Virus record (IMG/VR): IMGVR_UViG_3300010370_000310 | Coordinates: 1 to 20,496 of that record | DNA: 20,496 bases | Direction: 5' to 3' (one strand) | From: a virus | Shown here: positions 1 to 20,496 of the stretch, piece by piece | Layout of the letters: the number at the start of each line of letters is the position of its first letter | How positions within the stretch are numbered: the first letter of the stretch is position 1 | Notes under the pieces: generated by a model | The model's input: only the letters and a program-made list of their open reading frames with translations | Told to the model about the DNA's origin: nothing | Database searches by the model: none | Translations under genes and position numbers: made by a program

Positions 1-3
1 TAA
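1..3 (+). other. Probable stop codon of an upstream gene (TAATG junction)
   Basis: The window opens with TAATG, so a TAA stop would overlap the portal start codon by one base. The same one-base stop/start overlap (TAATG or TGATG) recurs at 4059-4063, 7187-7191, 7492-7496 and 7677-7681. It is therefore likely that another gene of the same operon ends here. By phage gene order it would be the large terminase, but none of its sequence is in the window. Confidence 0.4.
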
Positions 4-1841
4 TGGCACGAATTTCTAACAGGGACATTATCGCCAAGTACCGCAGCCGCATCGAGCAGTCTCGTCAGTGGCGTCGTGAGGAAAACTACGACGACCTGTG
101 GGAACGAATGATAAACCTGTATCGAGGAAAGCATTATCGTACGACCGCAGACGAGGACCGTCTGCTGGTTAACATTGCGTTTGCTACTATCAACGTGATA
201 GGTCCTAGTGTTTCGGTGAATCATCCGAAGATTACGGTAAACGCTAAGCGTTACGAGGATGCTGACCGTGCGGTGGTGACTGAGGCGATTGTTAACTATT
301 GGTGGCGGCATTATGACTGTCAGCGTGATTTCCGCCGAGCAGTAAAAGACATGCTGGTTGTGGGCCACGGCTGGCTGAAGACCGGGTACCGATTTGTTGA
401 GCGTTCAGAAGGCGAGTACGAGTTCACCGACGAACTCGCATCCACAGCGCCAGAGTCTGTGTCTGAGAGCGAAATCAAGATTACAGAGGACCGCCCATTC
501 GTTGAGCGCATCTCACCGTTCGATGTGTTTGTTGACCCAGATGCGACCAGCATGCAGGACATTCGTTGGATTGCTCAACGCATCCGACGACCATTGTCGG
601 AAGTGAAGAAGGATAAGCGGTATAACTCGGCTGCCCGTCAAGAGGCTTCGCCTTCGCACTACTCAAAGTGGAAGATTGATGACCGTCGCAAGACTCGCAC
701 AACCTACGAGGAGCAGGACGGGTATGTGGAGATTTGGGAGTTTTACGACATTGACAAAAACAAGATGTCGGTGTTCTGTGACGGGGGCGACAAGTTCCTT
801 GTCAGCCCCATCGAAATCCCGTTCTCATTCGGGCATCCATTTGTGATGCTTAGGAACTACGATGTGCCCGATTACTTTTACCCGATGGGTGAACTGGAAG
901 CCATCGAGCCTTTGCAGTTGGAGTTGAACGAGACTCGCACACAGATGATGAACCATCGAAAGAGGTTCTCCCGCAAGTGGTTGTACAAGGAGTCGGCGTT
1001 TGACTCGGATGGTCGTAGCGCCTTGGAGTCCGATGAAGACAATGTGATGGTTCCTGTGGTTTCTGAGGACGGTCTAAATAATGTTGTTGCACCGATGCCT
1101 GCCGTCATTAGCCCACCCGAGTTCTACAACCAGTCGAACCTGATTTCGTCTGACATTGACCGTGTATCGGGCGTATCAGAGTACATGCGTGGTGCTCTGC
1201 CTGAGATTCGTCGCACAGCGACCGAGGCGGCCATTGCACAAGATGCTGCTAATGCCCGTGCCTCAGACAAGTTGGCCGCCATTGAGCGTACGATTGCTGA
1301 TTGTGCCCGCCGTCTTGTGATGCTGGCACAGCAGTACATGACTGGTGAACAGGCGATTCGGATTGTCGGGGAAGGTTCGATGCCTGCTTGGTTGAACTTT
1401 GACCGTGACTATGTGAAGGGCGAGTTTGACTTTGATGTTGAGGGCGGTTCTACCGCCCCCGTGAATGAGTCGTTCCGCCGTCAGATGGCTTTGCAGGTGG
1501 TGGATGCGATGGCTCCGTTTGCTGGTCAAGGGATTATCGACATGCCAAAGTTGGCGAATTATGTTCTCCAGTACGGTTTCGGTATTAAGAACGCTGGCTC
1601 GTTTGTTCAGCCTGCTCCTCCACCGATGCCAGAAGGCATGCCTGAAGGCATGCCCGAGGGTATGCCGCCCGAGGCTGCTCCGATGCCGCCAAACCCAATG
1701 CCTGCGGTTCCTGCTGGCATGGAGGGCATGCCCACTGGTGGGCTGCCGATGCCCACGGACATTCCGCCAGAGATTCTGGCACAGTTGTTGGCTGCGGGTA
1801 ATCCGCTGCCAAATACAGCGTTACCGCCTCAGGGCATGTAA
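3..1841 (+). CDS. Portal protein (head-to-tail connector of a podovirus-like phage)
   Basis: This 612-residue protein is the probable dodecameric portal through which DNA is packaged and ejected. The N-terminal part is charged and helical (about 1-60). A middle part carries SPFDVFVDPDA (about 168-178), a pattern seen in P22-like and other podoviral portals where an aspartate/proline-rich strand precedes the stem and clip. A long helix follows around SGVSEYMRGALPEIRRTATEAA (about 390-412), typical of the wing and stem region. The last 80 residues are a Met/Pro/Gly-rich tail with tandem MPEG repeats, which is unusual and probably disordered. Length fits the family (roughly 500-750). Position directly before scaffold and capsid genes supports the call. 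The ATG at 3 overlaps a putative upstream stop. The assignment rests on motif memory and gene order, without a database search. Confidence 0.85.
   Translation: MARISNRDIIAKYRSRIEQSRQWRREENYDDLWERMINLYRGKHYRTTADEDRLLVNIAFATINVIGPSVSVNHPKITVNAKRYEDADRAVVTEAIVNYWWRHYDCQRDFRRAVKDMLVVGHGWLKTGYRFVERSEGEYEFTDELASTAPESVSESEIKITEDRPFVERISPFDVFVDPDATSMQDIRWIAQRIRRPLSEVKKDKRYNSAARQEASPSHYSKWKIDDRRKTRTTYEEQDGYVEIWEFYDIDKNKMSVFCDGGDKFLVSPIEIPFSFGHPFVMLRNYDVPDYFYPMGELEAIEPLQLELNETRTQMMNHRKRFSRKWLYKESAFDSDGRSALESDEDNVMVPVVSEDGLNNVVAPMPAVISPPEFYNQSNLISSDIDRVSGVSEYMRGALPEIRRTATEAAIAQDAANARASDKLAAIERTIADCARRLVMLAQQYMTGEQAIRIVGEGSMPAWLNFDRDYVKGEFDFDVEGGSTAPVNESFRRQMALQVVDAMAPFAGQGIIDMPKLANYVLQYGFGIKNAGSFVQPAPPPMPEGMPEGMPEGMPPEAAPMPPNPMPAVPAGMEGMPTGGLPMPTDIPPEILAQLLAAGNPLPNTALPPQGM
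1626..1661 (+). repeat. Three tandem 12-nt units coding for MPEG repeats in the portal tail
   Basis: Units at 1626-1637, 1638-1649 and 1650-1661 all encode Met-Pro-Glu-Gly. They differ only at third codon positions (CCA/CCT/CCC, GAA/GAG, GGC/GGT). A degenerate continuation with MP pairs runs to about 1760. Confidence 0.85.
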
Positions 1842-4883: not shown

Positions 4884-5576
4884 ATGTTGACTATTGTTGA
4901 GTTGCGGGCACAGGTCAGGGGCATGGCTGACCTTGATGAGGTTGACTTGCCTGATTCGGTGATTGACCAGTACGCCCGTGAAGGGTTCCAGCGCATTTAT
5001 GCGTTGGAGCGCAAGTGGCCGTATTTGGAGGAAACTTATACTTTTAACACGGTTGCTAATCAGCGTGAGTATGACATTGCCACGATTGGTGACATTCGTG
5101 AAATCATTTCGATTGTGGACACTAGCGCTTCTGGTGAGCGGTTCACTTTGATTTCTAACGCTGAAGCGGAGGAGATTTGGTTGGGCAACACGGATACTCC
5201 GAGTCGCCCGTATTTCTTTTCGTTTTGGGATAAGAAGATTTATCTGTGGCCAAAACCAGACAGCGTGTATCCGATTACTGTGCGTGCGTACCGTAATCCT
5301 ACTTACACTTGGTTGACAAATACTGCGTTGACTATTGACATGGACGAGTGGTTCCATCAGATTTTGCCTTACTTTATTCTTGGTCGTGCATACCAGCGTC
5401 AAGAGGACGCTGAGTTGTCGGCAATGCACATGCGTTCGTTTGAGGAAGGTGTTGCGTTTGCTCGAAGGGATTTGATGCGTGGTTCGTCGGCTCAGCCCGT
5501 GGTGATGTCTGGTGGACGCAGGTATCCGACGATGAGGCGTTGGTTGCAGACTCTTGGTGGGACGCTTGGGCAATGA
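4884..5576 (+). CDS. Head-tail adaptor (tail tubular protein A / gp4-like)
   Basis: This 230-residue protein probably forms the ring attached to the portal. In T7 this is gp11 and in P22 gp4. It starts with a helical pair (MLTIVELRAQVRGM, then LPDSVIDQYAREGFQRIYALERKWPYLEETYTF), which is a typical opening of this family. A beta-rich middle follows (REYDIATIGDIREIISIV, RPYFFSFWDKKIYLWPKPD at about 110-128), and then a C-terminal long helix region (WFHQILPYFILGRAYQRQED, EEGVAFARRDLM). Length fits (about 170-240). The ATG directly follows the previous stop and has GAAGGAAG (4871-4878) 5 nt upstream. It overlaps the nozzle gene by 4 nt (ATGA). Confidence 0.8.
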   Translation: MLTIVELRAQVRGMADLDEVDLPDSVIDQYAREGFQRIYALERKWPYLEETYTFNTVANQREYDIATIGDIREIISIVDTSASGERFTLISNAEAEEIWLGNTDTPSRPYFFSFWDKKIYLWPKPDSVYPITVRAYRNPTYTWLTNTALTIDMDEWFHQILPYFILGRAYQRQEDAELSAMHMRSFEEGVAFARRDLMRGSSAQPVVMSGGRRYPTMRRWLQTLGGTLGQ

Positions 5577-7189: not shown

Positions 7190-7494
7190 TGGCTACCTTG
7201 AACATTCCGAACACTTTTGTTGATGCGACTACGGCTGAGGCTAGTGAGGTAAATGCTAACTTCATTGCTGTAAAACAGTTTGCCGAGGGTTTGTCAGATG
7301 GCAGCAACATTGATGCGAGTGCTATCACGAGCACAAAGTTGGCTACTTCTGCTGTGGTGGAGGGAAAGATTGCTTCTGGTGCTGTGACGACTGCAAAGAT
7401 TGCCGATGGTGCTGTTACTGATGCAAAATTGGCTCCCGGTGCTGGTGGTGGTCCATCGATGAATAACATTTTGGCCAATCAGGTGTTTGGGTGA
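7189..7494 (+). CDS. Short tail-fibre-like repeat protein
   Basis: This protein has 101 residues. The N-terminal 45 residues (TFVDATTAEASEVNANFIAV) match a segment I know from the start of phage tail fibre and tail-associated proteins. Residues 50-79 are three 10-residue repeats (KLATSAVVEG, KIASGAVTTA, KIADGAVTDA) and a fourth begins at 80 (KLAPGA). Such K-[IL]-A-x-x-A-V repeats usually form a trimeric shaft. The end is a Gly-rich link and MNNILANQVFG. No receptor-binding head domain follows, so the protein is either a stub/shaft that needs a partner or a minor tail component. The TGATG overlap with the nozzle supports a tail role. AGAAAGG (7172-7178) is the likely ribosome binding site. Confidence 0.7.
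   Translation: MATLNIPNTFVDATTAEASEVNANFIAVKQFAEGLSDGSNIDASAITSTKLATSAVVEGKIASGAVTTAKIADGAVTDAKLAPGAGGGPSMNNILANQVFG
7336..7425 (+). repeat. Three 30-nt coding repeats (fibre-shaft decapeptides)
   Basis: Units at 7336-7365, 7366-7395 and 7396-7425 encode 10-residue repeats starting with Lys, and a partial fourth starts at 7426. DNA identity between units is only partial, while the K-[IL]-A...AV pattern is kept. Confidence 0.75.
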
Positions 7495-7679
7495 TGCAAG
7501 AAATCCGCATCCCCGCCCTGACCACTTTGACGACAGCAGATGCTACTGCTGTGCGTGCAATTGTGGCTGCGTTGGTTATGGAGATTGAGTCGTTGAAGCG
7601 GGATGTCGAGTCCCTGAAGAGGACTCGTGAAGATGTTTATGTGAATCGGATGATGACGATGAGAAGAAGGGGTGCGTAA
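7494..7679 (+). CDS. Small coiled-coil protein (61 residues)
   Basis: The ATG at 7494 overlaps the preceding TGA (TGATG); GTG at 7491 is an in-frame alternative. The sequence opens MQEIRIPALTTLTTADA, then has a helix with clear heptads (AIVAALVMEIESLKRDVESLKRTRED, residues about 22-47), and ends with an Arg/Met-rich tail. It overlaps the following gene by one base. The size and heptads suggest an oligomerising tail or internal component, but I cannot place it in a family. There is no export signal, and its Ala/Val stretch is too short and flanked too closely by charge for a confident holin call. Confidence 0.65.
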   Translation: MQEIRIPALTTLTTADATAVRAIVAALVMEIESLKRDVESLKRTREDVYVNRMMTMRRRGA

Positions 7680-8113
7680 TGTCGGTGTTTGACCCGAGCG
7701 TTTACGAGGCACGTCGCCGGGGTTTGCAACAGAACTATGCTGCCGAGGGTGCGATGAACGCATACCAGCAGTTCATTTCGCAGCAGCGTGGTCGGCGTGG
7801 TGTCGCTGACCTTGTGCGTGAATACGAGAAGGCTGCGCCTCAGGTGGTGTCTTCGTATGGTCGTCGTGGTTTGTCTGGCCCTAATGTTCGTTCTGGTGTG
7901 CTGAATCGTGCGTTGCGTGAATTCGCTCAACAGCGAATTCGTCAGCAGTCGGACATGGAGCGTCAGTTGGCTGAGTCTGCTATGGGGTATGACTTGTCGG
8001 AGCGTCGCCGTCAGGAGATGTTTCAGTCTGCGTTGCAGGATTTGGAGTCGGAAAAGGCTAAGGAAATAGCGGAGAGTGCCAGAAGTATTCTGGCTTATAG
8101 GGCGGGAGCGTAG
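7679..8113 (+). CDS. Putative small internal virion protein
   Basis: This 144-residue protein is Arg/Gln/Glu-rich and almost entirely helical (SQQRGRRGVADLVREYEKAA, then RALREFAQQRIRQQSDMERQ). There are no cysteines. It is placed after the tail genes and before larger helical proteins, the position of the small internal core protein in T7-type gene order (gp14). That analogy is by position and composition only. The start is TAATG-coupled and has AAGAAGGGG (7664-7672) 6 nt upstream. The stop (8111-8113) is two bases before the next ATG. Confidence 0.65.
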   Translation: MSVFDPSVYEARRRGLQQNYAAEGAMNAYQQFISQQRGRRGVADLVREYEKAAPQVVSSYGRRGLSGPNVRSGVLNRALREFAQQRIRQQSDMERQLAESAMGYDLSERRRQEMFQSALQDLESEKAKEIAESARSILAYRAGA

Positions 8114-8115
8114 CG

Positions 8116-9285
8116 ATGGTTGAGACTAATAGAGGGTTCAAGGTTTATCCGGGTACTACACCGAAACTTGTTTATGATGTAAAGCCGAATGCTCCTTGGA
8201 ACATTGGTGGAACGATAGGTGGTGAGGCGTTTGCCCAGACGCCTCAGGAACGGTTTGTTGAGCAATACCAAAGTGGGATGGGTGGAAAATCAATTTATTT
8301 CGGTGGCATGACTCCGTCTCAGCGCAGAGAACTTGGTTATGGTGATGCGTACGAAGTTGATGCGCAAAAACTCTATGACGAGTTTGTTGCTGCTGGCGGT
8401 TTTAATGTTCCTAAGATTCCGGGTCTCGGTGGCTCTGGTATGTCTTCGGCGGATGCGTTGGCTTTGCAGAAGTATCGTGATGAGCGTGCCGACCGTGCCG
8501 CCCAGCAGCGTGCACTGCAACAGTACCTTGCCAGTGGTCGTCTCGGTGGCATGAGTGCCGCCGAGGAAGCAGATGCGCAAGCACAGTATCAGCAGGCTTT
8601 GGCAAACATTGCCGCTGGTTATGGTGCGGCTGAGCAGTTGACTGGCGAAGGATACGGCGGCTTGGAGCAGTATCTGCGTGAGAATCAGGTGAACCCGTAT
8701 GCGGGTATGACTGTGAATGCTGGGTTGGTGACGAATCCGATGGAGCAGTTCTTGCAGGCGTATGGTGCATCCAGCCCTGATGTGCAGGCGGCTGTTGAGG
8801 CTGAGCAGTTGGCTCGCACCAGTGGTGCTGGTGCGTTCCAGAATTTGATTGATGTGTTGTCTGGTGCTGCTGGGCAAGCACAAACGTCCCGTGAGTCTGA
8901 GGCGAGAATGGCTCGGACGGTGGCTGAGCAGTTGTTGGGTCAGCAGAGGGCTGGGTTTGAGTCTCAGGCTGCTTCGGCTCGTCAGGCTGCGTTGGCTCAG
9001 ATTGCTCAGCGTCAGGCTGACCGTGAGTACGCTATTGAGAAGGCGTTGTTGGAGTTGGGTGTCATGCCAAGTGGTACTGAGGATGGTGGTGGAGAAGAGT
9101 CCTCTGGTGCTTCCGAAACTACTAGGGGTAGGCAGGAGATTGCGGCTTCTGCGCCGAACCTTAAGGCTGCTGCCCGTGAGTTTGCGCCCAAGTACATGGA
9201 GAAGAACCCAAATGCTACGCCTGCTCAGATTCGTAAGGCGTTTCCGAAGTTGGCGGCTGATTTTGATGCCGCTAAGAAGAAGTAA
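8116..9285 (+). CDS. Ala/Gln-rich putative internal virion or ejection protein
   Basis: I do not recognise the family of this 389-residue protein. The first 115 residues are a Gly/Pro/aromatic-rich, probably folded part (KVYPGTTPKLVYDV, KSIYFGGMTPSQRRELGYGD). Residues about 120-310 are long Ala/Gln/Glu helices (RDERADRAAQQRALQQYLAS; AQAQYQQALANIAAGYGAAE; ASARQAALAQIAQRQADREY). An acidic Gly/Ser linker lies at about 316-335 (GTEDGGGEESSGASE), then a Lys/Ala-rich C-terminal helical domain with TPAQIRKAFPKLAADF. Such Ala/Gln-rich helical proteins after tail genes are commonly virion proteins ejected with the DNA (T7 gp15, P22 gp20 or gp7 are analogues by position). GGGAG (8104-8108) precedes the ATG by 7 nt. 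Confidence 0.65.
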   Translation: MVETNRGFKVYPGTTPKLVYDVKPNAPWNIGGTIGGEAFAQTPQERFVEQYQSGMGGKSIYFGGMTPSQRRELGYGDAYEVDAQKLYDEFVAAGGFNVPKIPGLGGSGMSSADALALQKYRDERADRAAQQRALQQYLASGRLGGMSAAEEADAQAQYQQALANIAAGYGAAEQLTGEGYGGLEQYLRENQVNPYAGMTVNAGLVTNPMEQFLQAYGASSPDVQAAVEAEQLARTSGAGAFQNLIDVLSGAAGQAQTSRESEARMARTVAEQLLGQQRAGFESQAASARQAALAQIAQRQADREYAIEKALLELGVMPSGTEDGGGEESSGASETTRGRQEIAASAPNLKAAAREFAPKYMEKNPNATPAQIRKAFPKLAADFDAAKKK

Positions 9286-9302: not shown

Positions 9303-10481
9303 ATGTCAACTCCTTTTGAGCAGTTGCTGGCCTTGTTGGCAAGCCGTGGGGGCACGGACTTGTCCAGCGCCCTTGCGGACCCGTATTTGTCGTACATTGC
9401 TGGGTCTTATCAGCCTGAGCCGATGAAGTCTGAGGGTGACATTTATGCGGAGTTCGCCCCAACCTTAATGTCTATTGCCAACACTGAGCCTCCGGGTTCG
9501 TGGCGGCAGGTTGCCGCCTCCTCGATTGCATCAGGTGTACCTGCTTACAGGGTGAAAGAAGATGTGCTTCGTATTGCGTCGGAGAATCCAGACGCTTTGG
9601 GTTTAACTACTTCGGATGAGGCCACCAAGTTTGTTGATGAGTTGGCCTCAGAGAATCAGCGTGCACAGAACGAGTTGACGAAGCAGGCTGAGCGTCAGGA
9701 CCCGTTCCAGAAGGCTGGATACCCGGGTGCGACTCAAGTGTATTCACCATCTGATGTGGTGAACATGAACCCTGATTTGTTTTCTTCGATTATTGGCAGG
9801 AAAACTCCTAGCGAGTTGCAGACTAGGTTGGATGCTATTCGTGAGTATGGGAATAGAACTATTACTAGGGAGCAGAAGCCAATGGCCGAAGTGCAGCAAG
9901 GATTGGAACGTCCTCAGGGCGAACTTTCTGCATTTCTTTACGGTGGAAGTCCAGATTCAAAGATACGTGGCACCGCAGCAAATGTTTATTATGACCCATC
10001 GCAAGACAGGGCAACGACATTGACTGACGCCTTCAAGAAGGCTGGTTATCGTGGTGGCAAAACGTATCTTGGTGGTTTGATTGTTGAGAAACCAATTAGT
10101 TATCTTCAGGGTTTGGCTTCTGGTTTGGCTGACATTCCTTGGACAATTGGTGAAGACATTGTTGACGATTTTGGCACTGGACAGTATGGCGCTACTCGTG
10201 AGAAACGCATCCTTGAGCGTGAAGCGCAGAAGCGAACAAAGACCGACGCCGAGGGTAAGCCTAAAAGGGTTTTGTCCAAGTCTGCAACCGAGGCTTTGCG
10301 AAGGAATGCTTCCGAGGCTGCAAAGTTGGTTTCACGGATGAAAGGTGGTGAGGAATACAATCAGCGTGTTGCTGCTGCTTTGGCGGAAAAGATTTCTCAA
10401 GGAATGCAGGAGTACGGCAGAACACCTTTGTCGGATGCTCTTCTTCGCTCTGCGATTGTTGCCCGTCAACTAAGGAAGTAG
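9303..10481 (+). CDS. Putative internal virion protein, 392 residues
   Basis: A GGAAGGG (9287-9293) lies 9 nt before the ATG. The N-terminal region is helical with hydrophobic stretches (FEQLLALLASRGG, YLSYIAGSY). A charged helical region with ENQRAQNELTKQAERQDPF lies near 115-133. A Gly/aromatic region with GYRGGKTYLGGLIVEKPISY (about 245-264) leads into LASGLADIPWTIGEDIVDDF, amphipathic and perhaps membrane-interacting. The C-terminus is Lys/Ala-rich (about 310-390). No catalytic motif is seen. It ends 8 nt before the giant gene and probably acts with it in ejection. This is inferred from position; an unrelated structural role is also possible. Confidence 0.6.
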   Translation: MSTPFEQLLALLASRGGTDLSSALADPYLSYIAGSYQPEPMKSEGDIYAEFAPTLMSIANTEPPGSWRQVAASSIASGVPAYRVKEDVLRIASENPDALGLTTSDEATKFVDELASENQRAQNELTKQAERQDPFQKAGYPGATQVYSPSDVVNMNPDLFSSIIGRKTPSELQTRLDAIREYGNRTITREQKPMAEVQQGLERPQGELSAFLYGGSPDSKIRGTAANVYYDPSQDRATTLTDAFKKAGYRGGKTYLGGLIVEKPISYLQGLASGLADIPWTIGEDIVDDFGTGQYGATREKRILEREAQKRTKTDAEGKPKRVLSKSATEALRRNASEAAKLVSRMKGGEEYNQRVAAALAEKISQGMQEYGRTPLSDALLRSAIVARQLRK

Positions 10482-10489
10482 GTTTTTGA

Positions 10490-13400
10490 ATGGCTGTCGC
10501 TAAAGACAACCAGCAGTTGCTGGAGTCGCTCCGCCGTGTCGGAGACACCAGCAGAGGTGTAGCACAGAACTCTAGGTACACGCCGCCAGCAGGCGCACGA
10601 ATGAGTTTAGGTGTCAATGATGAGCGGTTGCGGGCACTTCGTGCCGCACCGCAGTTGAAAGACCAGATAGATGCCATTGCGGCGGGAAAACCACAACCGT
10701 CTGGTGCGGCGGGCACAATTGGGAAACTGATTCTTGATAACCCTGTGTCGAAGGTTGCTTTGAATGCTTTGTCGGTTGTGGATACACCTAGGCGTGCAGT
10801 TATTTCTGGTGTTCGTGAACTGGTTGATTTGGTTGATGGCGACAGCGCAACGAAAGGTTCTTTTGCTGATTGGTACAAGCAGACCGCAGACCCGACGTAT
10901 GGGTTTGGTACGGCTTTCCCGATGGACGGCTGGGGTGGTCGCATCTTGGGTTTCGTTGGTGATGTTGCTCTTGACCCATTGACTTATGCAACGCTTGGTT
11001 CTTGGGTTCCAGCCAAGTCTGTAATTAAGTCTGGTGTTTATGCTGGTCAAACTTTGCGTTCGACATTGGGTGTGAGAACTTTGGCTGGTGCTGAAGGTCG
11101 TTTTGCTTTGGCGAGATTGTCGAAGACGATGGGCGCTAGTGATGAAGCGGTGAAGCAGATTGCCGCAAGGGGTGCTATTGCTGTGCCTGCCGAGATTGCT
11201 GACAACATTGGTTTGCGTAAGGCTGGCATCTACTATTTTGGAACCCGTGTTCGGGTTCCGCTTTCTGCTCCAGTAGCAAATCTTGTTCAACGTGGTTTGG
11301 TTAGGACTAGGTTGGGTTTCTTTGGTTGGGAGGCTGGAGAAAAGATTGGTCGCCAGTTTGCTCTTCGTGGAACGAATCCTTCGGCGGACACATCGCTTCA
11401 AAGGTTCCGTCTTGCCACAGGTAAAACTACTGCACAGGAGGCTGGCGCTTTTATCGGTGAGTTCGCCGCACAAGATGTTGCTCGTGCAACTAAAAGGTTT
11501 GCAATTGACACAGCAGTCAAGTACAGCCGTCAGTTGATGGATGACCCTGATGTTCAAAATGTTTCCACTTCTGTTTATAGGCTGCTTGATACGCCGCAGG
11601 AGAAGTGGGCTGAACTTGGCATCAGTCCAACTGCCACAGAGTTAAAGGCTTACGACAAAATAAGACCAGTCTTTGAGCGCATGCACGCTGATGTAGAAGC
11701 CGCTTTCGCCAATGCTGGTGTTCCTATTTCGTTTGGAAAGATTTCGGATTACCTTCCGCACATGGCCACCGATGATGCTTTGAAGATGATGGATGATGAA
11801 GCGTCTGCTTACGCTAAGCAAATCCGCCAGTACCTAACAGTAAACCAAACGGACAATGTTGGTTCGTTCCGTTCAAGAACACTCAGGAAGGGTAGCGACT
11901 GGTTTTCTCAGGACGGCAAGTATCCGGCACTGACTCAAGCCGACATTGATGGTGGCGTGCAGAGATTAAACCAGTTGTTCCGTGAACGAACTGGTTTGGA
12001 TTTTGATTTTTACGAAACAGACATTAAGAAAATCCTGAATCGTTACTCCAACTATTACGGTCAACAGATTGGTTCTGCTGCATACATGAAGGAACTGTTT
12101 GGTAGTGACAACCTAAGGTTTGCCAAAGAGATTGCCGAGTTCTCCGAGGACTATTACGACATTGTCAACCAAAGTGTCAAGACGGCAACAAACGCTCATA
12201 GCGAATCCTTGAAGGGTGCATACGAGGATGTTGACGTTATTCTGCAGAATGTAATCGAGGCAAGCGATGTGCTGACTAGAAAAACGGCGACAAGAACTAG
12301 ACCAGTTGGCGAACTGGCTCAGGTTGTTGCTGATGCTAAAGCAACCCTGAAAGAGATTCCTACAGAAGAGAAGGCGCTTGCTCGTCTTGTGTCTGCAAAG
12401 TCTAGGTTGCAGGAACGAATGAACAAGTTGAGTGCAAGTTGGAGAAACTTCGAGAATCAGTTTGCAGAAGAGTCTGACATTCTTGACATGATGCGACAAG
12501 AGCACAATGCTCTGGTCGCACAGCACGAAAAGGTAATGTCTACCCTTAACGACTTGATTCGCAACGACCAGTTCAGGACTCTTCGCATAGATGAAGTTGC
12601 GGACACAATGCAGTCTTTGAAGAATGAAATCTCCAACCTGAATCTTGAGATTCGTCAACATGGCAGCAAGTGGGAAACCATGCTGGAGAAACAGCAGACA
12701 CTTCTCGGTGACTTTGATAAGTATTACGAGGACCCGTGGGCCGGTCTTGGTGACAGCCCCGCCGACCGTGTTCTTGGTTTGGTTCGCTTCAGCGGTCGAG
12801 GTAAACAATACGACAGCATTCTCGGCAAACTGGATGACAAGACATTGTTCTCTGATTGGAGTGGACAGAACACGACTGACGCTGTGCGTGAACTGCGTTT
12901 ACGGATTGACCCCAACGCTGAGTTTTCTGCCGCACAATTGAAGAAGATGACCGCCGCTGATGTGCGTGAAATAATTTCTTCTGGGTTCACTTCTGCCGCA
13001 GACACAACCAGATTGCGTATGGCTGCCGCTTGGCTTGTCGCCAGAGACATTCACATTAATGGCGGTCTTGTTCCCACTGACGAAATTTATTTCGGCAGGC
13101 TCAAGAAAATGGAGGGACTGATTGCCCGTGCAATCGAAGTGGACAGATTGGTTCGCTCTGACGCCACTGGCGAAAAGTTTGTTGCAGGATTCAAGAATGT
13201 GGTTGAGATTGAATCCCAGATAGCCGACTTGGATGCTAGGTCTTCTGCGATTGTGCAGGAGATGTATCGCCTTGAGGATAAAACTTCGGCGCTCATGGAC
13301 ATTCTTTATAAAGAAGAAGACAAACTTTTGGTTTGGGCTAAGACGGAAAGAGAGATTGAGGTTCTTAGGAAAGAACTGAACACCGTCAATGATGAGTTGC

Positions 13401-16400
13401 GTGTTGCAGAAAACAATAGGCAGAAAATCATTAAAAAGTATCAGCCAGAACAAATTGAGGCTTTTAATACGCTTTCGGGAAACAATTTCCGTCAACTCAC
13501 CGAGGAGTTGTCGGAAAGTATTTCTGAATACTATTTCCACTCTCAGGTCAGATACATGTTTTCTGGAATGACAGAAGAGGCTGCGTCTCTCGGGCTGGTT
13601 CCGACCGAGCGGATGTACAACGCTTTGGTTGCGAGAATAACTGAGTACGATTTGGAACTTGCTGGAGCGGTAAGCCAGAAGGTTAAGGCGACTCAGGATT
13701 TGTTTGCTTCACTGCGTGAGGCAAACAGGTCGTATACGGGCACAGATGCTGGCATCTACCTGTTGAACAACTTGATTGATTTGTTCAAGAATCCCGAGAG
13801 GGCGGCTGATGCGGCGTTGATGCGTGAGATGTTCCCCGAGGTTGAAGCGGTTGTTGCTCGCAGAATGGATTCTTTCCGCAGCGGTAGGGCTTACTTTAGA
13901 ATTACCGAGGGTGATGCGATTGCCCGCTCCATTGACGAGACAATGAAGAGGCTGGGTGTTGCTCAGGTTCCCGGCACGTATCTTGTGCCCGCACCTCAGA
14001 CGGGTAGGAAGATTACTAGGCAGGCTCGAATTGCCCGCATGACGGATGAACAGATTGCCGCAGAAGCGGAGGAGTTCCGCAACCTACGCATTGTTGATTC
14101 AGCAGAGTTGCAGGAATCTTCGAAAGGTTTGGAAACCCGTTTCAAGTCTGTTAAGCAAAACCTGCAGAGATTGCTGTCTGAAAGAGACAGGATTCAAACT
14201 CGTTTGATGAATCACGAAAACGCTGTTGCAACAATACAAAATGTTCCAGTTGAAAGTTCTCGTAATGCATTGATAGAAAAACTTACGAAGAGCGGAAAAC
14301 TTCTTGATGAACAAACAGTCAAGGACCTTAAGGATGGTATTCGTTCTATCAGTGAAATAGAACTCAGGCATTCGCAGGCTCTTTCAACCGTGTCAAAGCA
14401 TAGCAAGTGGGCGAATGGAGCAACGAAGCGTTTGACTGGCAAGAGTGGTAAGCGTTCTGGTGCAAAGATTATGAATGCGATGATGGCGCAGGGCGATTCC
14501 TTTGGAATCGGCCCACGCCTAAGTGCTGCAATCGGAAAAGAAACTGGTGGTAGCCCGCTTGCCGTTGAGTCGTTCTTTGCTGATTTGATTGGTGGTGTTA
14601 AGCCAGACTACAGAATCATGCCACGAAACGCTATGTCCCGTCATGGCAAACTTGTTCGTGTGATTCCAATGAGGGAAGATTTTGTCAACATCTATCAGCG
14701 TGCCGACAATCGTTTGGTTGACTCGGCTGGACAGTTTGTTAATGATGGCGGTAATCGAGTTGACATTCAGTTCCGTGAGTTGGACATCGACGGAAACATT
14801 GCGGCTGAAACAGGTAAGCCCGTAATGAAGGGCGCAAAGTCCACGAGGCCAACGATTCTCGTTAAGGCTGAAGATTCAGAGTTGGGCAAGATAAGGTCGA
14901 GGGCTGCGTCTCGCTACGGAAAACTTCGTTCCCTTTCAGTAGATGCCGAGTTAATGCCGACCGAAAGTTTGAAGATGGGGACAAGAAACCCTGACGGCTC
15001 TACGAGTTGGTTGTTTACCGAGGGTCTGGTTGGTCGTGGAGCGTATGCTCACCAGTTGGAGTTGGCTCTTGATGTGCTCGACGACAAGCAAAAAGTTGTT
15101 GACAGGTTGACCAAAGAAGTTTCTGACTTGGAGAAGAAGGCAGCAACCAAGACTCGTCAGATAGACCGTGCACAGCCGAGCGAGGCTCGGCGTACAGTTG
15201 CTCGTCGCAGAATCGACAAGGCCCGTAGATTGTCTGCGAAGTTGGATGCGCTGACCCAAGGACCGGGTCAGTTGCGGGCACAAGAAAGGCGTTCGTTTAA
15301 TGACTTCTTGAAGAAGTTGGCGTTGTTGGACGAGAACTCTATTGAGAACTTTTCTTGGAACATTTCTGCGGACGAGTTCCCTGTTGGTTCGGCTGGTCGC
15401 ACATCGGTTGACGAGGAGTACGCAAGGATTCTTGAGCGCAACATTGAGAAGTTGCGTCAAGTGGTTGGAAGGTTTGAGCGTGGCATCATGGCGGAGATGC
15501 GTATGCCTGCATCTGCGAATCCGCAGATGCGTCAGTTGAACGCCATGTTGTTTGATTTGGAGCAGACAAGGCAGCGTATTGCTGATGCAGCGGCTACTGG
15601 CTTGAGGCCAGAGGATTTTGCTTTCACAAGGGCAGAGTTTATGTCGTTGTGGTCAGAGATTACACCAGAGCAGGCTGGCGTATTGCGACGAGAGTTTGCT
15701 CAGTTGAGTAGTGAGTTGAATGCTCGTGTTGGTCAGCAGTCCTCGCCTGTGTATGCAAGGTTTGCTCCAGAAAAAATTGCAGAAAACACTGCACGAATTG
15801 AACAGGTGATGTTGAGGATGCGTGAGGTTGGTGTCTTGTTGGACCAAGTTGCTTCTCAAGATGTTGCCCTGCGTAAAGCAAAGTTTCTATTTGACAAGTT
15901 TGATGATGTCGAATACCAGAGAATTAATGGTATTGCCCAGAAGATGAGGACAAGAAACTCGACTGGTATTCGTGGTGGTGTTGGTGTTGAAGTTCGTTTT
16001 GGCGGCCCAAAGACTGCTGCGGCACGGCAGGTTGCAATGGATGCCGGTTCGGCAACTGGCGATGTTGATGAGGTTCTGGCTGTTCTCGGTGGACAGATTG
16101 CCGCTAAAGAAAAAGAAATGGCCACCTTGCGCAGGGGCACTGGTCAGTATCTTGCGGTTAAGAATGACATTGAGCGTTTGCGTCAACAGTTCCATCAAGT
16201 TTCTCGTGCTAAAAATAATTCTCGTTTTGAGACAACTGTTGTTCAGCAAAAGGATGTTGTTTCTTGGGACAAGCGTAAGCAGTTGGGTGCGTTGAATCTT
16301 TATCTTGCTGATGCCCCTGCGGCATCGGACGCCGCCGTAAGGCAGCGCCGTGCCAACCTTAACAAGGTTTTCAATGAGTCCCCAGAGGGGCAGCATTTGA

Positions 16401-18829
16401 TTGAAGTCAGCAATGTCCAAAAGGAAATTGTTGATGCACGCATGGAGCGTGACTCGATTTATCAAACCAAAGAAAATCTCATGGCCGCTAGGCGTGAGAT
16501 ACAAGCAATCATTGCTGAGAAGCGCAGGGAGATTGCCGAGTTGCGTATCGATAGAACCATCGATGACGCTAACGAAATTCTTTCTGCTGCCCAGAAACAA
16601 ACCAAGACACGCCTAGGGAAGGTGTCGAAGCAGGAGCCGCTGAAGACGGGTCGGCAAGCACAGAAGGCTTTGGAGCGTGACATCAATAGGGAGCGTGGCG
16701 GACGCAGGTTCTTTGAGTTGGATGAAGAATTGTTTGGCTCTCTACAGGCGAAGAATGCTGGAGAGTTGACGGAGAAACAGTCGCAGCGAAGGGACATGTT
16801 GGAGAGGTTGTATGCGTTGGACCTTGAGCATCTTGCTTTGTTGGATGAGCGCAAGGCAACTCTTGATGCTGTGAACGATTTGGTCAAGGTTGGTGATGAA
16901 GGTGCACGTGCGCTTGGTTTGCCGTTGCCGAGTCAGATTCTTCGCAACCTTGAACTTGGTAAAGAGTTGCGTAAGTCTCAGGCTAAGGCAACCAATCCAA
17001 TGGTCAAAGAAATCTTGAAGAAAGAAAAGAAGGTTGCTGCTTTGACGAAGAGCAAGGATGCTGTCGAACGCAAGATTGATGATGAGTTTGTTGGTTTGAA
17101 CGACGCAGTCAAGACGGCTCAAGCCGCCTATGACTTTGCGCGCACATCGAGAAAGCCCGCCGAGGAAACTCTTCGTGTCGCTCAACAGCAGTACGACATC
17201 GTCAAGCAGTTGAATTCTGACGCCAGAAAACTTCGTTCTTCTATCAGCGCAAAAACTGATTCTTGGTATGAAGAGTTTGATGAGTTCATGCTTGATGTCG
17301 AGCAGATGATGCCGATGCTGAAGGGAACCGATTTAGAGAAGCCTATTCGCGATGTGCACGCATCGTTCCTTGCACAGAAGGCAATCGTGTTGCAGGAGAA
17401 GTTTGGCAAGTCTATTGCCGAACAGGAGAAACGTGTTCTCGATGGCATCAAGGGTTTGGTTTCAACAGACCCTGCTCAAGCAGCATTGACCGCATCTCTT
17501 GCTGGTCCCTATGGCATGCCGAATGCTATTAACTTTACAACTATTTTTGATGAAGGGTTTGTGCAGTTGAGTGAATACTTCCCGAACATTGGTGTTCGGA
17601 AAGAGTTGGCTGAGATTGTTCAGAACGTGCATCGAGCACAGGACCCTGCCGTCACTAGGGAACTTGCCAAGTTCTTGACCAAGTACACGCAATTCTTCAA
17701 GGGGTACGCAACTCTCAGCCCCGGGTTCCATGTTCGCAACGGCTTGACAAACGGCTTCATGTTATTTGCTGCTGGTGGTAGACCACAGTTTTTGGCGGAG
17801 GCTTTGCAGTGGTCGAAGTCTTGGACCGCTGCTTCTGGTCGTGGTGTGACGTTTGCCGAGTGGATAAAGACGGTTCCACAAGCAAACCGTCAGGTTGTTT
17901 ATGATGCGATGATGGCTACAGCCGCATCTGGTGGTGGTCTTGTTGATGATGCTCTTCGTGAAGGAACATTGTTTGGAACAAAAACAAGCCGCAAGTTGGG
18001 TCAATGGCTTGAACAGCATTCACGGTTCATGTTGGCTTACGATGGTATTCGTAGCGGCATGGACATGCAGGCTTCCGCTGCTCGTGTCCGCAGGTTCTTG
18101 GTTGACTACGAGAATGTGTCGAATGCAGACTTGTTGATGCGTCAGATTATTCCGTTCTGGATGTGGACCAGCAGAAACGTGCCCATGCATTTGATGAACA
18201 TCTGGATGAACCCGAGGGCATACCAAATCTATGGTGCAATTAAACGGAACTTGGAAGACAAGGAAGACAATCGACCTGTTCCGCTGTGGATGCGCGAGAT
18301 GGGTGCGTTCAAGTTGCCATTCGGAAAAAATCTGTATGCTTCGCCTGACCTTGGTTTCAACAGATTGAATCAGGACATTGAGCAGTTGCGTGACCCTGCT
18401 CGTTTTGCGTCGAACCTGAACCCGCTTATTCGTTTGCCTATCGAGTTGATGGGTGGACGGCAGTTGTATTCTGGAAGACCGTTTGATGAGCAGCCTGTCG
18501 AGGTTCAGGGTGGTGCATCATCGGTGATTCAGCCGCTGCTGCAGGCGTTGGGTTACGGTGAGACTGGTCCTACTGGCAAAAAGTTTGTGGACGACAAGGC
18601 GTATTATGCGTTGCGCAGTTTGATTCCGACGCTCTCGCAAGCGGAGCGTCTCATTCCATCGACCCCTGCCTATCAGGAGCGTGGTATAGCGAACCCGCTG
18701 CTCGGCTACTTGGGTGCGCCTGTGCGTCAGGTCACCCAGCAGATGAGCGAGAGTGAGGTTAAGAGGATGCAGGCACAACTCAGGGAACTTGCTGAGCGTG
18801 GCAAAACATTGAGGGGGGGAGAGGGATGA
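10490..18829 (+). CDS. Giant virion-associated protein (2779 residues)
   Basis: This is one uninterrupted frame of 8340 nt. AAGGAAG (10472-10478) lies 11 nt before the ATG. The N-terminal region has a hydrophobic/Gly segment GFVGDVALDPLTYATLG (154-170) of a style I associate with large phage virion proteins. SDYLPHM (419-425) is followed by FRSRTLRKGSDWF. From about 600 on, coiled-coil rods (about 628-745, 905-995, 1210-1250, 1523-1600, 1859-1905, 1966-2040, 2178-2258) alternate with more globular parts, including a beta-rich part at about 1340-1490. The C-terminal 380 residues hold HVRNGLTNGFML (2414-2425) and RQIIPFWMWTSRNVP (2551-2565), resembling a conserved C-terminal module of very large phage proteins ('polyvalent-type'). 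I looked for lytic transglycosylase, P-loop, methyltransferase and N4-type polymerase motifs and found none convincing. By position it corresponds to the large internal core/ejection protein of T7-like phages. Function is inference. Confidence 0.7.
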   Translation: MAVAKDNQQLLESLRRVGDTSRGVAQNSRYTPPAGARMSLGVNDERLRALRAAPQLKDQIDAIAAGKPQPSGAAGTIGKLILDNPVSKVALNALSVVDTPRRAVISGVRELVDLVDGDSATKGSFADWYKQTADPTYGFGTAFPMDGWGGRILGFVGDVALDPLTYATLGSWVPAKSVIKSGVYAGQTLRSTLGVRTLAGAEGRFALARLSKTMGASDEAVKQIAARGAIAVPAEIADNIGLRKAGIYYFGTRVRVPLSAPVANLVQRGLVRTRLGFFGWEAGEKIGRQFALRGTNPSADTSLQRFRLATGKTTAQEAGAFIGEFAAQDVARATKRFAIDTAVKYSRQLMDDPDVQNVSTSVYRLLDTPQEKWAELGISPTATELKAYDKIRPVFERMHADVEAAFANAGVPISFGKISDYLPHMATDDALKMMDDEASAYAKQIRQYLTVNQTDNVGSFRSRTLRKGSDWFSQDGKYPALTQADIDGGVQRLNQLFRERTGLDFDFYETDIKKILNRYSNYYGQQIGSAAYMKELFGSDNLRFAKEIAEFSEDYYDIVNQSVKTATNAHSESLKGAYEDVDVILQNVIEASDVLTRKTATRTRPVGELAQVVADAKATLKEIPTEEKALARLVSAKSRLQERMNKLSASWRNFENQFAEESDILDMMRQEHNALVAQHEKVMSTLNDLIRNDQFRTLRIDEVADTMQSLKNEISNLNLEIRQHGSKWETMLEKQQTLLGDFDKYYEDPWAGLGDSPADRVLGLVRFSGRGKQYDSILGKLDDKTLFSDWSGQNTTDAVRELRLRIDPNAEFSAAQLKKMTAADVREIISSGFTSAADTTRLRMAAAWLVARDIHINGGLVPTDEIYFGRLKKMEGLIARAIEVDRLVRSDATGEKFVAGFKNVVEIESQIADLDARSSAIVQEMYRLEDKTSALMDILYKEEDKLLVWAKTEREIEVLRKELNTVNDELRVAENNRQKIIKKYQPEQIEAFNTLSGNNFRQLTEELSESISEYYFHSQVRYMFSGMTEEAASLGLVPTERMYNALVARITEYDLELAGAVSQKVKATQDLFASLREANRSYTGTDAGIYLLNNLIDLFKNPERAADAALMREMFPEVEAVVARRMDSFRSGRAYFRITEGDAIARSIDETMKRLGVAQVPGTYLVPAPQTGRKITRQARIARMTDEQIAAEAEEFRNLRIVDSAELQESSKGLETRFKSVKQNLQRLLSERDRIQTRLMNHENAVATIQNVPVESSRNALIEKLTKSGKLLDEQTVKDLKDGIRSISEIELRHSQALSTVSKHSKWANGATKRLTGKSGKRSGAKIMNAMMAQGDSFGIGPRLSAAIGKETGGSPLAVESFFADLIGGVKPDYRIMPRNAMSRHGKLVRVIPMREDFVNIYQRADNRLVDSAGQFVNDGGNRVDIQFRELDIDGNIAAETGKPVMKGAKSTRPTILVKAEDSELGKIRSRAASRYGKLRSLSVDAELMPTESLKMGTRNPDGSTSWLFTEGLVGRGAYAHQLELALDVLDDKQKVVDRLTKEVSDLEKKAATKTRQIDRAQPSEARRTVARRRIDKARRLSAKLDALTQGPGQLRAQERRSFNDFLKKLALLDENSIENFSWNISADEFPVGSAGRTSVDEEYARILERNIEKLRQVVGRFERGIMAEMRMPASANPQMRQLNAMLFDLEQTRQRIADAAATGLRPEDFAFTRAEFMSLWSEITPEQAGVLRREFAQLSSELNARVGQQSSPVYARFAPEKIAENTARIEQVMLRMREVGVLLDQVASQDVALRKAKFLFDKFDDVEYQRINGIAQKMRTRNSTGIRGGVGVEVRFGGPKTAAARQVAMDAGSATGDVDEVLAVLGGQIAAKEKEMATLRRGTGQYLAVKNDIERLRQQFHQVSRAKNNSRFETTVVQQKDVVSWDKRKQLGALNLYLADAPAASDAAVRQRRANLNKVFNESPEGQHLIEVSNVQKEIVDARMERDSIYQTKENLMAARREIQAIIAEKRREIAELRIDRTIDDANEILSAAQKQTKTRLGKVSKQEPLKTGRQAQKALERDINRERGGRRFFELDEELFGSLQAKNAGELTEKQSQRRDMLERLYALDLEHLALLDERKATLDAVNDLVKVGDEGARALGLPLPSQILRNLELGKELRKSQAKATNPMVKEILKKEKKVAALTKSKDAVERKIDDEFVGLNDAVKTAQAAYDFARTSRKPAEETLRVAQQQYDIVKQLNSDARKLRSSISAKTDSWYEEFDEFMLDVEQMMPMLKGTDLEKPIRDVHASFLAQKAIVLQEKFGKSIAEQEKRVLDGIKGLVSTDPAQAALTASLAGPYGMPNAINFTTIFDEGFVQLSEYFPNIGVRKELAEIVQNVHRAQDPAVTRELAKFLTKYTQFFKGYATLSPGFHVRNGLTNGFMLFAAGGRPQFLAEALQWSKSWTAASGRGVTFAEWIKTVPQANRQVVYDAMMATAASGGGLVDDALREGTLFGTKTSRKLGQWLEQHSRFMLAYDGIRSGMDMQASAARVRRFLVDYENVSNADLLMRQIIPFWMWTSRNVPMHLMNIWMNPRAYQIYGAIKRNLEDKEDNRPVPLWMREMGAFKLPFGKNLYASPDLGFNRLNQDIEQLRDPARFASNLNPLIRLPIELMGGRQLYSGRPFDEQPVEVQGGASSVIQPLLQALGYGETGPTGKKFVDDKAYYALRSLIPTLSQAERLIPSTPAYQERGIANPLLGYLGAPVRQVTQQMSESEVKRMQAQLRELAERGKTLRGGEG
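11240..11259 (+). other. Perfect 8-bp hairpin inside the giant gene
   Basis: GGAACCCG (11240-11247) pairs with CGGGTTCC (11252-11259) around TGTT. It codes for GTRVRVP. No T-run follows. It may be chance within codons for this sequence or an RNA structural element. Confidence 0.4.
18811..18825 (+). promoter_or_regulatory. Purine-rich ribosome binding site for the peptidase gene
   Basis: GAGGGGGGGAGAGGG lies directly before the ATG at 18826, inside the last codons of the giant gene (which read RGGEG). It supports this start and efficient re-initiation at the ATGA overlap. Confidence 0.75.
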
Positions 18830-19341
18830 AGCACCGTCGACAGTACACGGGTAACGCCGACGGCGTAGCCAAGGGGTTGCGTCCCGGCATGAAGGTGTGG
18901 ATTCAGGAAGTGATTGACCTTAGCGATGGGGTGTTGTGGAACAACGGTGCGTTTGCTGTCAGGGAGATGCGCTCGAAGTCTTCACTGAGTGTGCACGCCA
19001 CGGGTCGTGCGGTTGACCTGAGTTACCGTGGGAAGAAGGGTGGCCGTAAGAAAGCGGTGGATGTTATGAGGTTGCTGGTCCGTTACGCAGACGAAGTCGG
19101 CCTAGAAGCCATCTTGGATTATTTCCCGAAACCACATGGTCGGGGCTACCGCTGCGACCGTGCAGGTTGGTCTCGTTACCGTCGCCCGACAATCTCGGGT
19201 GCGCCGGGTGGGGACTGGATACATTGTGAAGTGTCCCCTGAGTTTGCTGACAGTCCAAAGAGGGTGCGTCAGGGGTTTGCGAAAATTCGTGCTGACATTC
19301 TTCAAGGTCAATCTCAGGCTGGTCCAACAACACAATCTTGA
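18826..19341 (+). CDS. M15-family zinc peptidase (probable endolysin or virion-associated peptidoglycan hydrolase)
   Basis: This 171-residue protein carries the M15 (D-Ala-D-Ala carboxypeptidase/VanY-like) signature: SVHATGRAVDLS (55-66), where His57 and Asp64 fit the zinc-binding S-x-H-x6-D motif, and GDWIHCE (129-135), where His133 would be the third zinc ligand and Asp130 or Glu135 the acidic catalytic residue. Expected substrate is the peptide cross-link or stem of cell-wall peptidoglycan. There is no signal peptide or transmembrane segment and no obvious separate cell-wall-binding domain, although the Lys/Arg/Gly-rich stretches could bind wall polymers. It overlaps the giant gene by 4 nt (ATGA). 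A virion-associated entry role or an endolysin role are both possible; no holin is recognised next to it. Residues 80-171 are overlapped on the other strand by another gene. Confidence 0.8.
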   Translation: MKHRRQYTGNADGVAKGLRPGMKVWIQEVIDLSDGVLWNNGAFAVREMRSKSSLSVHATGRAVDLSYRGKKGGRKKAVDVMRLLVRYADEVGLEAILDYFPKPHGRGYRCDRAGWSRYRRPTISGAPGGDWIHCEVSPEFADSPKRVRQGFAKIRADILQGQSQAGPTTQS

Positions 19342-19883: not shown

Positions 19884-20043
19884 GTTTGGCTCCGTTCTCA
19901 ACATGAATGTATCTGGTCGGAATCCCATTTTCGGAAATACCTTTGCCGATTGACACCCTGCCGTATCGCTCAGCAAGTATCGCAGCCACTTCCGCAGGAG
20001 AGACCGCAACATCAAAGCCCACCGTTATCTGCCAAGTCTTCAA
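19870..20043 (-). CDS. 57-residue protein with TTG start
   Basis: This small gene is easily missed because the start is not ATG. A frame from TTG 20043 to TAA 19872-19870 encodes MKTWQITVGFDVAVSPAEVA followed by AILAERYGRVSIGKGISENG and IPTRYIHVENGAKHERR. It has the look of a compact alpha/beta protein. GAGAGAGAGG (20060-20051) precedes TTG by 7 nt, a good Shine-Dalgarno spacing. TTG 20049 and GTG 20022 are alternatives. It overlaps the sigma-like gene by 32 nt at its start and the 100-residue gene by 14 nt at its end, filling what would otherwise be a gap of about 130 nt. No family is recognised. Confidence 0.65.
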   Translation of the reverse strand: MKTWQITVGFDVAVSPAEVAAILAERYGRVSIGKGISENGIPTRYIHVENGAKHERR

Positions 20044-20395
20044 GTCCAATCCTCTCTCTCACGATGGGGTTCTCTAGGAGAATCAACTTTAGCCGATTCA
20101 TCGCCGCATTTGTAAGCCTCCAAGCATGAGGCTTGGATACGCCAAGGCGCTGCCCCAGTTCTTCAAACGAAATCATTTCACTGTTGATTGCATCAATGAT
20201 GAACCTGTCCTCATCAGACAGTTGTTCGATGCATGACGCCACCGCTTCTCGCAGTGGCTGTAGTTCTTGCACAGACTCGACTGCATCTTCTCCGATTCCA
20301 GCCATCATCAACGCTTCGATGGGTGTCTCGGGTCGGCGGTGACCACGCATCGATGCGATGTGCATCGGACTAAGGGAAGAATCTTTATTGGTCAT
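20012..20395 (-). CDS. Sigma-70 region-4-like helix-turn-helix protein
   Basis: This protein has 127 residues from ATG 20395 (overlapping the upstream stop by 11 nt). The frame is open further upstream, but there it is Cys/Ser/Arg-rich and is a shadow of the upstream gene. Residues 48-107 resemble sigma factor region 4: LREAVASCIEQLSDEDRFII, then ISFEELGQRLGVSKPHAWRL with the 'EL...LGVS...A..L...A..RLK' helix-turn-helix pattern (about 76-105). There is no region 2 (core-polymerase/-10-binding), so it is unlikely to be a full sigma factor. It may be a promoter-binding regulator or polymerase-appropriating protein. The Shine-Dalgarno sequence is weak, suggesting coupling. The HTH call is firm; the sigma relation is an inference from motif style. 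Confidence 0.75.
   Translation of the reverse strand: MTNKDSSLSPMHIASMRGHRRPETPIEALMMAGIGEDAVESVQELQPLREAVASCIEQLSDEDRFIIDAINSEMISFEELGQRLGVSKPHAWRLTNAAMNRLKLILLENPIVRERIGLEDLADNGGL
20346..20357. other. 12-bp perfect palindrome
   Basis: CGCATCGATGCG reads identically on both strands. It lies in the coding part of the sigma-like gene (HIASMR region), and a near repeat of GATG/CATC follows at 20356-20367. It could be an operator for a dimeric regulator or simple chance. Confidence 0.3.
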
Positions 20396-20496
20396 CGGCA
20401 TCAAACGCTGGCTCGATGAGCAACGCCATGACTTCATCTGGCAACAGCAGGTATCCTCTCGCAGGATTCGTTGACGAACCTGCAAACACTTTGAGA
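20385..20496 (-). CDS. 3' end of an unidentified gene running off the right edge
   Basis: A minus-strand frame enters at the window edge and ends at TAA (20387-20385), giving 36 codons that end GYLLLPDEVMALLIEPAFDA then DDQ. The composition is protein-like (hydrophobic helix then acidic end), and the ATG of the sigma-like gene lies in its last codons (11-nt overlap), as seen at the other junctions in this block. Too little is present to identify the product. The start is outside the window. Confidence 0.55.
   Translation of the reverse strand, partial: LKVFAGSSTNPARGYLLLPDEVMALLIEPAFDADDQ

What the first reader, a model, noticed from the sequence alone, without database searches (positions are those of the whole stretch)
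10490..18829. 2779-residue protein alternating coiled-coil rods and globular parts, 41 percent of the window
The sequence shows one uninterrupted 8.3-kb frame with at least seven coiled-coil stretches, a hydrophobic segment near residue 160, and no enzyme motif I can recognise. In T7-like phages the position would hold the internal core/ejection protein (about 1300 residues with a transglycosylase in T7). Here it is twice that length and seems to lack the transglycosylase motif. It might be an ejected channel/rod, a tape-like conduit, or a polyvalent protein delivered into the host.
Basis: partly seen in the sequence, partly recalled or inferred. Interest (0 to 1): 0.75.

Follow-up and report, generated by a model that had tools for sequence, protein, structure and literature searches.

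The report
Giant cysteine-free phage ejection protein
A short-tailed phage that probably infects actinobacteria devotes about 40% of this 20.5-kb fragment to one giant rod-like protein with no cysteine at all, most likely a protein stored in the phage head and fired into the cell to make a path for the DNA.

Summary
In detail: one uninterrupted 2779-codon frame (10490-18829), with heptad-rich stretches well above chance and no recognisable enzyme. The 'hydrophobic segment near 160' is not a membrane helix; it is a highly conserved motif (GFVGDVALDPLTYATLG).

Seventy-nine complete proteins (this one included) share one plan: a conserved N module (about 480 aa), a variable spacer (162-2249 aa, coiled coil only in the longer classes) and a conserved C module (about 400 aa). 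The C module resembles the LPD38 region that ends phage 'polyvalent' giants, but below family cut-offs.

The strongest clue is composition. Eighty relatives contain no cysteine in 191,081 residues. Of 32 gene families at these loci, essentially only the giant and the genes just upstream lack it. T7 gp15/gp16, P22 gp7/gp20/gp16, N4 vRNAP and JC1 gp67-gp69, known ejection or virion proteins, also lack it.

Best explanation (0.75): the largest member of a four-gene ejection cassette, stored in the head and ejected through the portal. No transglycosylase, polymerase or effector domain was found. It is a new variant of a known kind; whiB in close relatives points to actinobacterial hosts. Packaging and ejection are inferred, not shown.

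The parts
10490..18829 (+). Giant 2779-aa protein, 0 Cys, 26 Trp
10667..12115 (+). Conserved N module, residues 60-542, mostly helical in the predicted model
   Evidence: profile boundaries; alignments; model
10931..10999 (+).
12116..17611 (+). Variable spacer, residues 543-2374: coiled-coil rods alternating with globular parts; 162-2249 aa in relatives
17612..18796 (+). Conserved C module, residues 2375-2769, related in fold to the C-terminal region of large polyvalent proteins
17978..18160 (+). LPD38-like segment (residues 2497-2557, ending in IIPFW) aligned with the JC1-type profile
   Evidence: E 2.4e-4, probability 44%
7679..8113 (+). Cassette gene 1, 144 aa, 0 Cys; homologues 142-161 aa in 78 ORFs
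8116..9285 (+). Cassette gene 2, 389 aa, 0 Cys
9303..10481 (+). Cassette gene 3, 392 aa, 0 Cys
3..1841 (+). Portal protein (SU10/P22 type), context
4884..5576 (+). SU10-type adaptor, context
18826..19341 (+). Putative endolysin/peptidase directly downstream (weak family matches; 2 Cys, so outside the cysteine-free block)

Best explanation
The giant is the largest of four consecutive ejection (pilot, internal virion) proteins of a podovirus that probably infects an actinobacterium. Proposed course: the four proteins are stored in the head near the portal. On adsorption they leave through the portal and tail before or with the DNA, as partly unfolded threads or beads on a string. They then reassemble in the envelope as a conduit through wall and membrane. 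The conserved N and C modules would do docking and assembly. The fast-evolving coiled-coil spacer would be the extensible rod. Cysteine is excluded because these chains pass a narrow channel and an oxidising exterior, where a disulfide would jam transit or refolding. Shown here: gene order, module plan, spacer variability, confinement of coiled coil to the spacer, cysteine exclusion limited to this cassette (plus the scaffold), and no recognisable enzyme domain. Inferred: packaging, ejection, conduit formation and the reason for cysteine loss.
For: Position after portal, head protein, adaptor and hub and before a lysin, kept in Shocker, Brad and MW202795. 0 Cys in 191,081 residues of 80 giants against 2444 in 217,713 residues of other ORFs at the same loci. 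Of 32 gene families six have at most 0.18 Cys per 1000 residues: the giant, the three upstream genes (one in two clusters) and one unlabelled family of the size of the gene directly upstream of short-spacer giants. Positive controls with 0 Cys: T7 gp15 and gp16, P22 gp7, gp20 and gp16, N4 vRNAP, JC1 gp64 and gp67-69; T7 gp14 has one. JC1 gp69, an LPD38 giant, is abundant in purified virions with gp67 and gp68 (PMC9144972). C-module fold matches giants of that kind. Papers on N4-like phages already link the cysteine-free vRNAP to passage through the tail.
Against: No virion proteomics or structure of this family. Cysteine absence is not sufficient: scaffolds, N4 head protein and P22 gp26 also lack it. 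It is not necessary either: the LPD38 giant of Bacteroides phage BKO1-TP3 has 8. No convincing membrane segment in the cassette. A review ties ejection proteins to podoviruses of Gram-negative hosts (PMC8954989).
Confidence: 0.75

Rival explanations
1. Polyvalent effector: the giant is ejected, but its main job is to act on the host (anti-defence, host takeover) through globular parts of the spacer that belong to undescribed domain families.
For: The C module resembles that of polyvalent giants fused to ART, zeta-toxin, helicase and RelA/SpoT domains. The spacer diverges fastest, as expected of arms-race parts, and holds globular stretches between rods.
Against: No known effector or enzyme domain in this protein or 23 relatives. 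Short-spacer relatives work with almost no spacer (162-259 aa).
Confidence: 0.13
2. Retained structural protein: the giant is a tail or head component (tape-measure-like, tail tip or fibre-linked) that stays with the particle.
For: It is encoded among virion genes; weak PHROG matches to a tail fibre family (phrog_19395, 14 of 21 C modules, best 1e-5) and to tape measures.
Against: The relative Jasmine has a 10-nm tail (PMC5513430), far too short for such a tape. Retained virion proteins of these phages (portal, head protein, hub) carry cysteine.
Confidence: 0.08
3. The cysteine signal is only a by-product of coiled-coil, scaffold-like composition and says nothing about ejection.
For: Scaffold proteins, helical and not known to enter the cell, are also cysteine-free.
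Against: The N and C modules, which are not coiled coil and contain Trp, lack Cys equally. JC1 gp69, described with helicase-, methylase- and LT-like domains, has 0 Cys in 4515 aa. 583 of the giant's 2779 codons are one mutation from a Cys codon.
Confidence: 0.1

Closest known systems
T7 core/ejection proteins gp14-gp15-gp16 and P22 gp7-gp20-gp16
   Same: Last and largest gene of a run of ejection genes downstream of portal, scaffold and head protein; cysteine-free (T7 gp14 has one)
   Different: T7 gp16 1318 aa and P22 gp16 609 aa against 2779; no sequence match worth counting; no transglycosylase domain found here; four cassette genes rather than three; probably actinobacterial host
N4 virion RNA polymerase gp50 with gp51 and gp52
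   Same: Giant, cysteine-free, last gene of a cassette with two smaller cysteine-free proteins; proposed beads-on-a-string ejection (PMC12633501)
   Different: No RNA polymerase domain found; no sequence relation seen; coiled-coil rods dominate the middle
Burkholderia phage JC1 gp69 ('DarB-like', LPD38 polyvalent giant) with gp67 and gp68
   Same: Giant after two smaller cysteine-free virion proteins; 0 Cys; C-terminal region of likely related fold
   Different: 4515 aa with helicase-, methylase- and LT-like domains; LPD38 over the cut-off there, not here
Microbacterium phage Shocker gp37 and Arthrobacter phage Brad gp26 (Jasminevirus)
   Same: Same locus, N motif, cysteine-free with the genes just upstream; Shocker also matches the C module
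   Different: Shorter (1743 and 1803 aa), about 22-25% identity, uncharacterised; Brad does not match the C profile by sequence, only its relative GurgleFerb by fold

Membership tests
Podovirus ejection-protein cassette (T7/P22/N4 kind) | Encoded in the late virion operon after portal and head genes as the largest of consecutive genes | tested here: met
Podovirus ejection-protein cassette (T7/P22/N4 kind) | Packaged in the virion and released on infection | not testable with these tools
   Only by analogy with JC1 gp69 (PMC9144972)
Podovirus ejection-protein cassette (T7/P22/N4 kind) | Forms a trans-envelope channel | not testable with these tools
   No membrane segment predicted, which does not exclude it
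T7 gp16 family | N-terminal transglycosylase (SLT) domain, which can move to the gp15 homologue in some phages | tested here: not met
   No Pfam or NCBIfam match in the giant, nor Pfam match in the three upstream proteins
LPD38 (PF18857) | Score over the curated cut-off of 27 bits | tested here: not met
   No match in the window; two relatives at 16.1 and 13.2 bits inside the C module
LPD38 (PF18857) | Shared fold with LPD38-bearing C-terminal regions | tested here: inconclusive
   Foldseek prob 1.00, E 1e-44 to 1e-4, to large-polyvalent-protein entries, TM by query 0.36-0.41 for the distant ones; profile comparison E 2.4e-4, probability 44%
Polyvalent proteins (Iyer et al. 2017) | Two or more effector or enzymatic domains in one ejected chain | tested here: not met
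   None in this protein or 23 relatives; undescribed domains would be missed
N4-type virion RNA polymerase | T7-like RNA polymerase domain | tested here: not met
   No such match
Tail tape measure protein | Long tail whose length the protein sets | tested here: inconclusive
   Virion of this phage not seen; relative Jasmine is short-tailed; tape-measure PHROG matches only at E 0.03-0.14

The most novel reading that the evidence does not exclude
Podoviruses of actinobacteria use an unrecognised ejection machine in which one giant chain, with fixed docking modules at both ends and a coiled-coil spacer of adjustable length, spans the thick wall and sets the reach of the conduit; and cysteine exclusion is a general mark by which ejected proteins can be picked out of podovirus genomes.
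Probability: 0.2. Interest if true: 0.85.

Novelty: new variant of a known kind. Interest (0 to 1): 0.62.

Why it matters
Relatives of this virus's head protein are common in public viral contigs (at least 598 matching stretches), yet the largest gene of these genomes had no assigned function. If right, it extends the podovirus ejection cassette to phages of probable actinobacterial hosts, where a review ties it to Gram-negative ones. In the papers I found, the cysteine rule was reported only for N4-type vRNAP; here it marks a whole four-gene cassette and also holds for T7, P22 and JC1. That makes 'which virion proteins are ejected?' testable from sequence across phage databases.

Tried and rejected
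Whole-protein searches of Pfam, PHROGs and PDB gave nothing useful. Coiled-coil look-alikes (SMC, 'helix-rich protein', ATG17, FIMAH, tape measures) were rejected as composition matches. Fold search of the N and C models in the PDB found only helical bundles, aligned mainly to the coiled-coil parts; this does not show a new fold. A first scan with the whole giant found nothing; the head protein and then the C module were used instead. The full C alignment was too divergent to scan with. No relative turned up in prokaryotic genome contigs. Two expected records were not held. A locus of a Shiga-toxin-converting phage fetched among LPD38 hits was set aside unused. Spacer length against host was looked at through whiB: 23 of 58 long-spacer loci and 0 of 8 short-spacer loci with 3 kb or more downstream carry it (p 0.04, relatives not independent), but MW202795 has a short spacer and two annotated whiB genes, so no rule is claimed. 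A transmembrane reading of residue 160 was rejected. A weak N-profile match to T7 gp16 (E 0.018 in an unfiltered search) was not counted.

Full report
What is there. The window is the whole of a 20,496-base virus record, a fragment of a podovirus genome. Before the finding lie a SU10/P22-type portal, scaffold, major head protein, SU10-type adaptor and a hub-like virion protein. The reported frame is real: 2779 codons at 10490-18829 without a stop. Coiled-coil periodicity is about twelve times more frequent than in shuffled copies. The segment near residue 160 is not hydrophobic enough for a membrane helix (maximum 1.16) but is a highly conserved N-terminal motif.

Relatives. The giant itself is too divergent to find by a simple scan, so I went through the head protein, which is 83-89% identical in 80 viral loci. 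Giants sit at the same place there. A C-module alignment then brought in 80 loci with 69 complete giants. Among named phages only a few relatives were found: two uncultured podoviruses from Manatee Spring, Microbacterium phage Shocker and the Arthrobacter Jasmineviruses. Jasmine is a podovirus with a 10-nm tail (PMC5513430). One of the two closest relatives and 22 more loci carry WhiB-like genes; the former was confirmed against Pfam. A freshwater-actinophage paper calls whiB a key indicator of actinophages (PMC10202952).

Anatomy. Profiles of the two ends place an N module of about 480 aa and a C module of about 400 aa in 79 complete proteins, the C module usually ending about 10 residues before the stop. 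Between them lies a spacer of 162 to 2249 aa in length classes. Against three near relatives, identity is 57-66% (N), 34-39% (spacer) and 66-75% (C), with most gaps in the spacer. Coiled-coil signal is confined to the spacer and to the longer classes. Models: C region mean pLDDT 81.5, N region 76.8, both mostly helical.

Cysteine. The giant has no cysteine but 26 tryptophans. All 80 giants together: 0 in 191,081 residues; other ORFs at the same loci: 2444 in 217,713. After clustering, six of 32 families have at most 0.18 per 1000 residues. Five of them are the giant, the homologues of 7679-8113 and 8116-9285, and two clusters of the 9303-10481 gene. The sixth, unlabelled, has a median of 284 aa and matches in size the gene directly upstream of short-spacer giants. 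The giant and 389-aa clusters hold 5 and 3 cysteines; those of the giant cluster are not in the 80 giants and probably sit in fragment ORFs, such as those of the broken giant in L197. Head protein, portal, hub and lysin have 3.7-9.6 per 1000; the scaffold has none. In controls, T7 gp15 and gp16, P22 gp7, gp20 and gp16, N4 vRNAP and JC1 gp64 and gp67-gp69 have none, T7 gp14 has one, and most head, portal and tail proteins have some; N4 head protein and P22 gp26 are exceptions. Papers on N4-like phages report the vRNAP case and tie it to passage through the tail. I found no paper in this library that generalises it, and a review of ejection proteins does not mention cysteine.

C module and polyvalent giants. 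The best BFVD matches are 'large polyvalent protein associated domain' proteins, with further matches fused to ART, zeta-toxin or helicase domains, plus the Shocker and GurgleFerb giants. LPD38 itself is reached only below cut-off in two short-spacer relatives (16.1 and 13.2 bits; a third hit lies outside the giant), while JC1, K248, BKO1-TP3 and MinM2 score over 119 bits. Profile comparison aligns the segment before IIPFW with the JC1-type region, E 2.4e-4, probability 44%. I take common descent as likely but not shown. JC1 gp69 is abundant in purified virions together with gp67 and gp68 (PMC9144972), and LPD38 is reported only from phage-type polyvalent proteins (PMC5512222).

Mechanism. T7, P22 and N4 eject internal proteins that form a trans-envelope channel; for N4 a beads-on-a-string chain is proposed to pass a channel of about 35 angstrom (PMC12633501). 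The four cysteine-free genes here (144, 389, 392 and 2779 aa) fit the same logic. The conduit role, the copy number and the meaning of spacer length are inference. A host-acting role of globular spacer parts remains possible.

Limits. Relatives are not independent, so the counts are not probabilities. The heptad score is home-made. Cysteine absence is neither necessary nor sufficient for ejection. The host is inferred from whiB in relatives, since the window itself showed none.

Noticed in passing
window 1886-2677 and its homologues: The scaffold protein is also cysteine-free in all 49 distinct homologues, as are the T7 and P22 scaffolds; scaffolds also leave the head, which may be the common reason.
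   Followed up: partly
L240:698-17359: The 5553-aa LPD38 giant of Bacteroides phage BKO1-TP3 has 8 cysteines, the exception among the giants counted; its host is an anaerobe, where disulfides may matter less.
   Followed up: no
L197:449-11281: In this relative the giant is broken into several ORFs in different frames, by mutation or sequencing error.
   Followed up: partly
L154-L233: WhiB-like genes appear only at long-spacer loci (23 of 58 against 0 of 8 with 3 kb or more downstream), but MW202795 (short spacer, two whiB) breaks a simple rule.
   Followed up: partly
window 20012-20494 (-): Opposite-strand ORF with a weak sigma-70 region 4 match, open at the contig end; the acI phages E7 and F5 are also reported to carry a sigma-70 factor.
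   Followed up: no
window 7189-7494: A 101-aa ORF matches stretches of much longer tail fibre families; homologues range from 75 to 298 aa, so it may be a fibre anchor stub.
   Followed up: no
window 4334-4458: A 57-bp tandem repeat (2.2 copies) lies inside the small basic 148-aa ORF between head protein and adaptor.
   Followed up: no
PMC10202952, phages E7 and F5: An 8-kb variable island of hypothetical genes separates these two otherwise similar 39-kb acI phages; it is the size of this giant gene, but their genomes were not at hand to test it.
   Followed up: no
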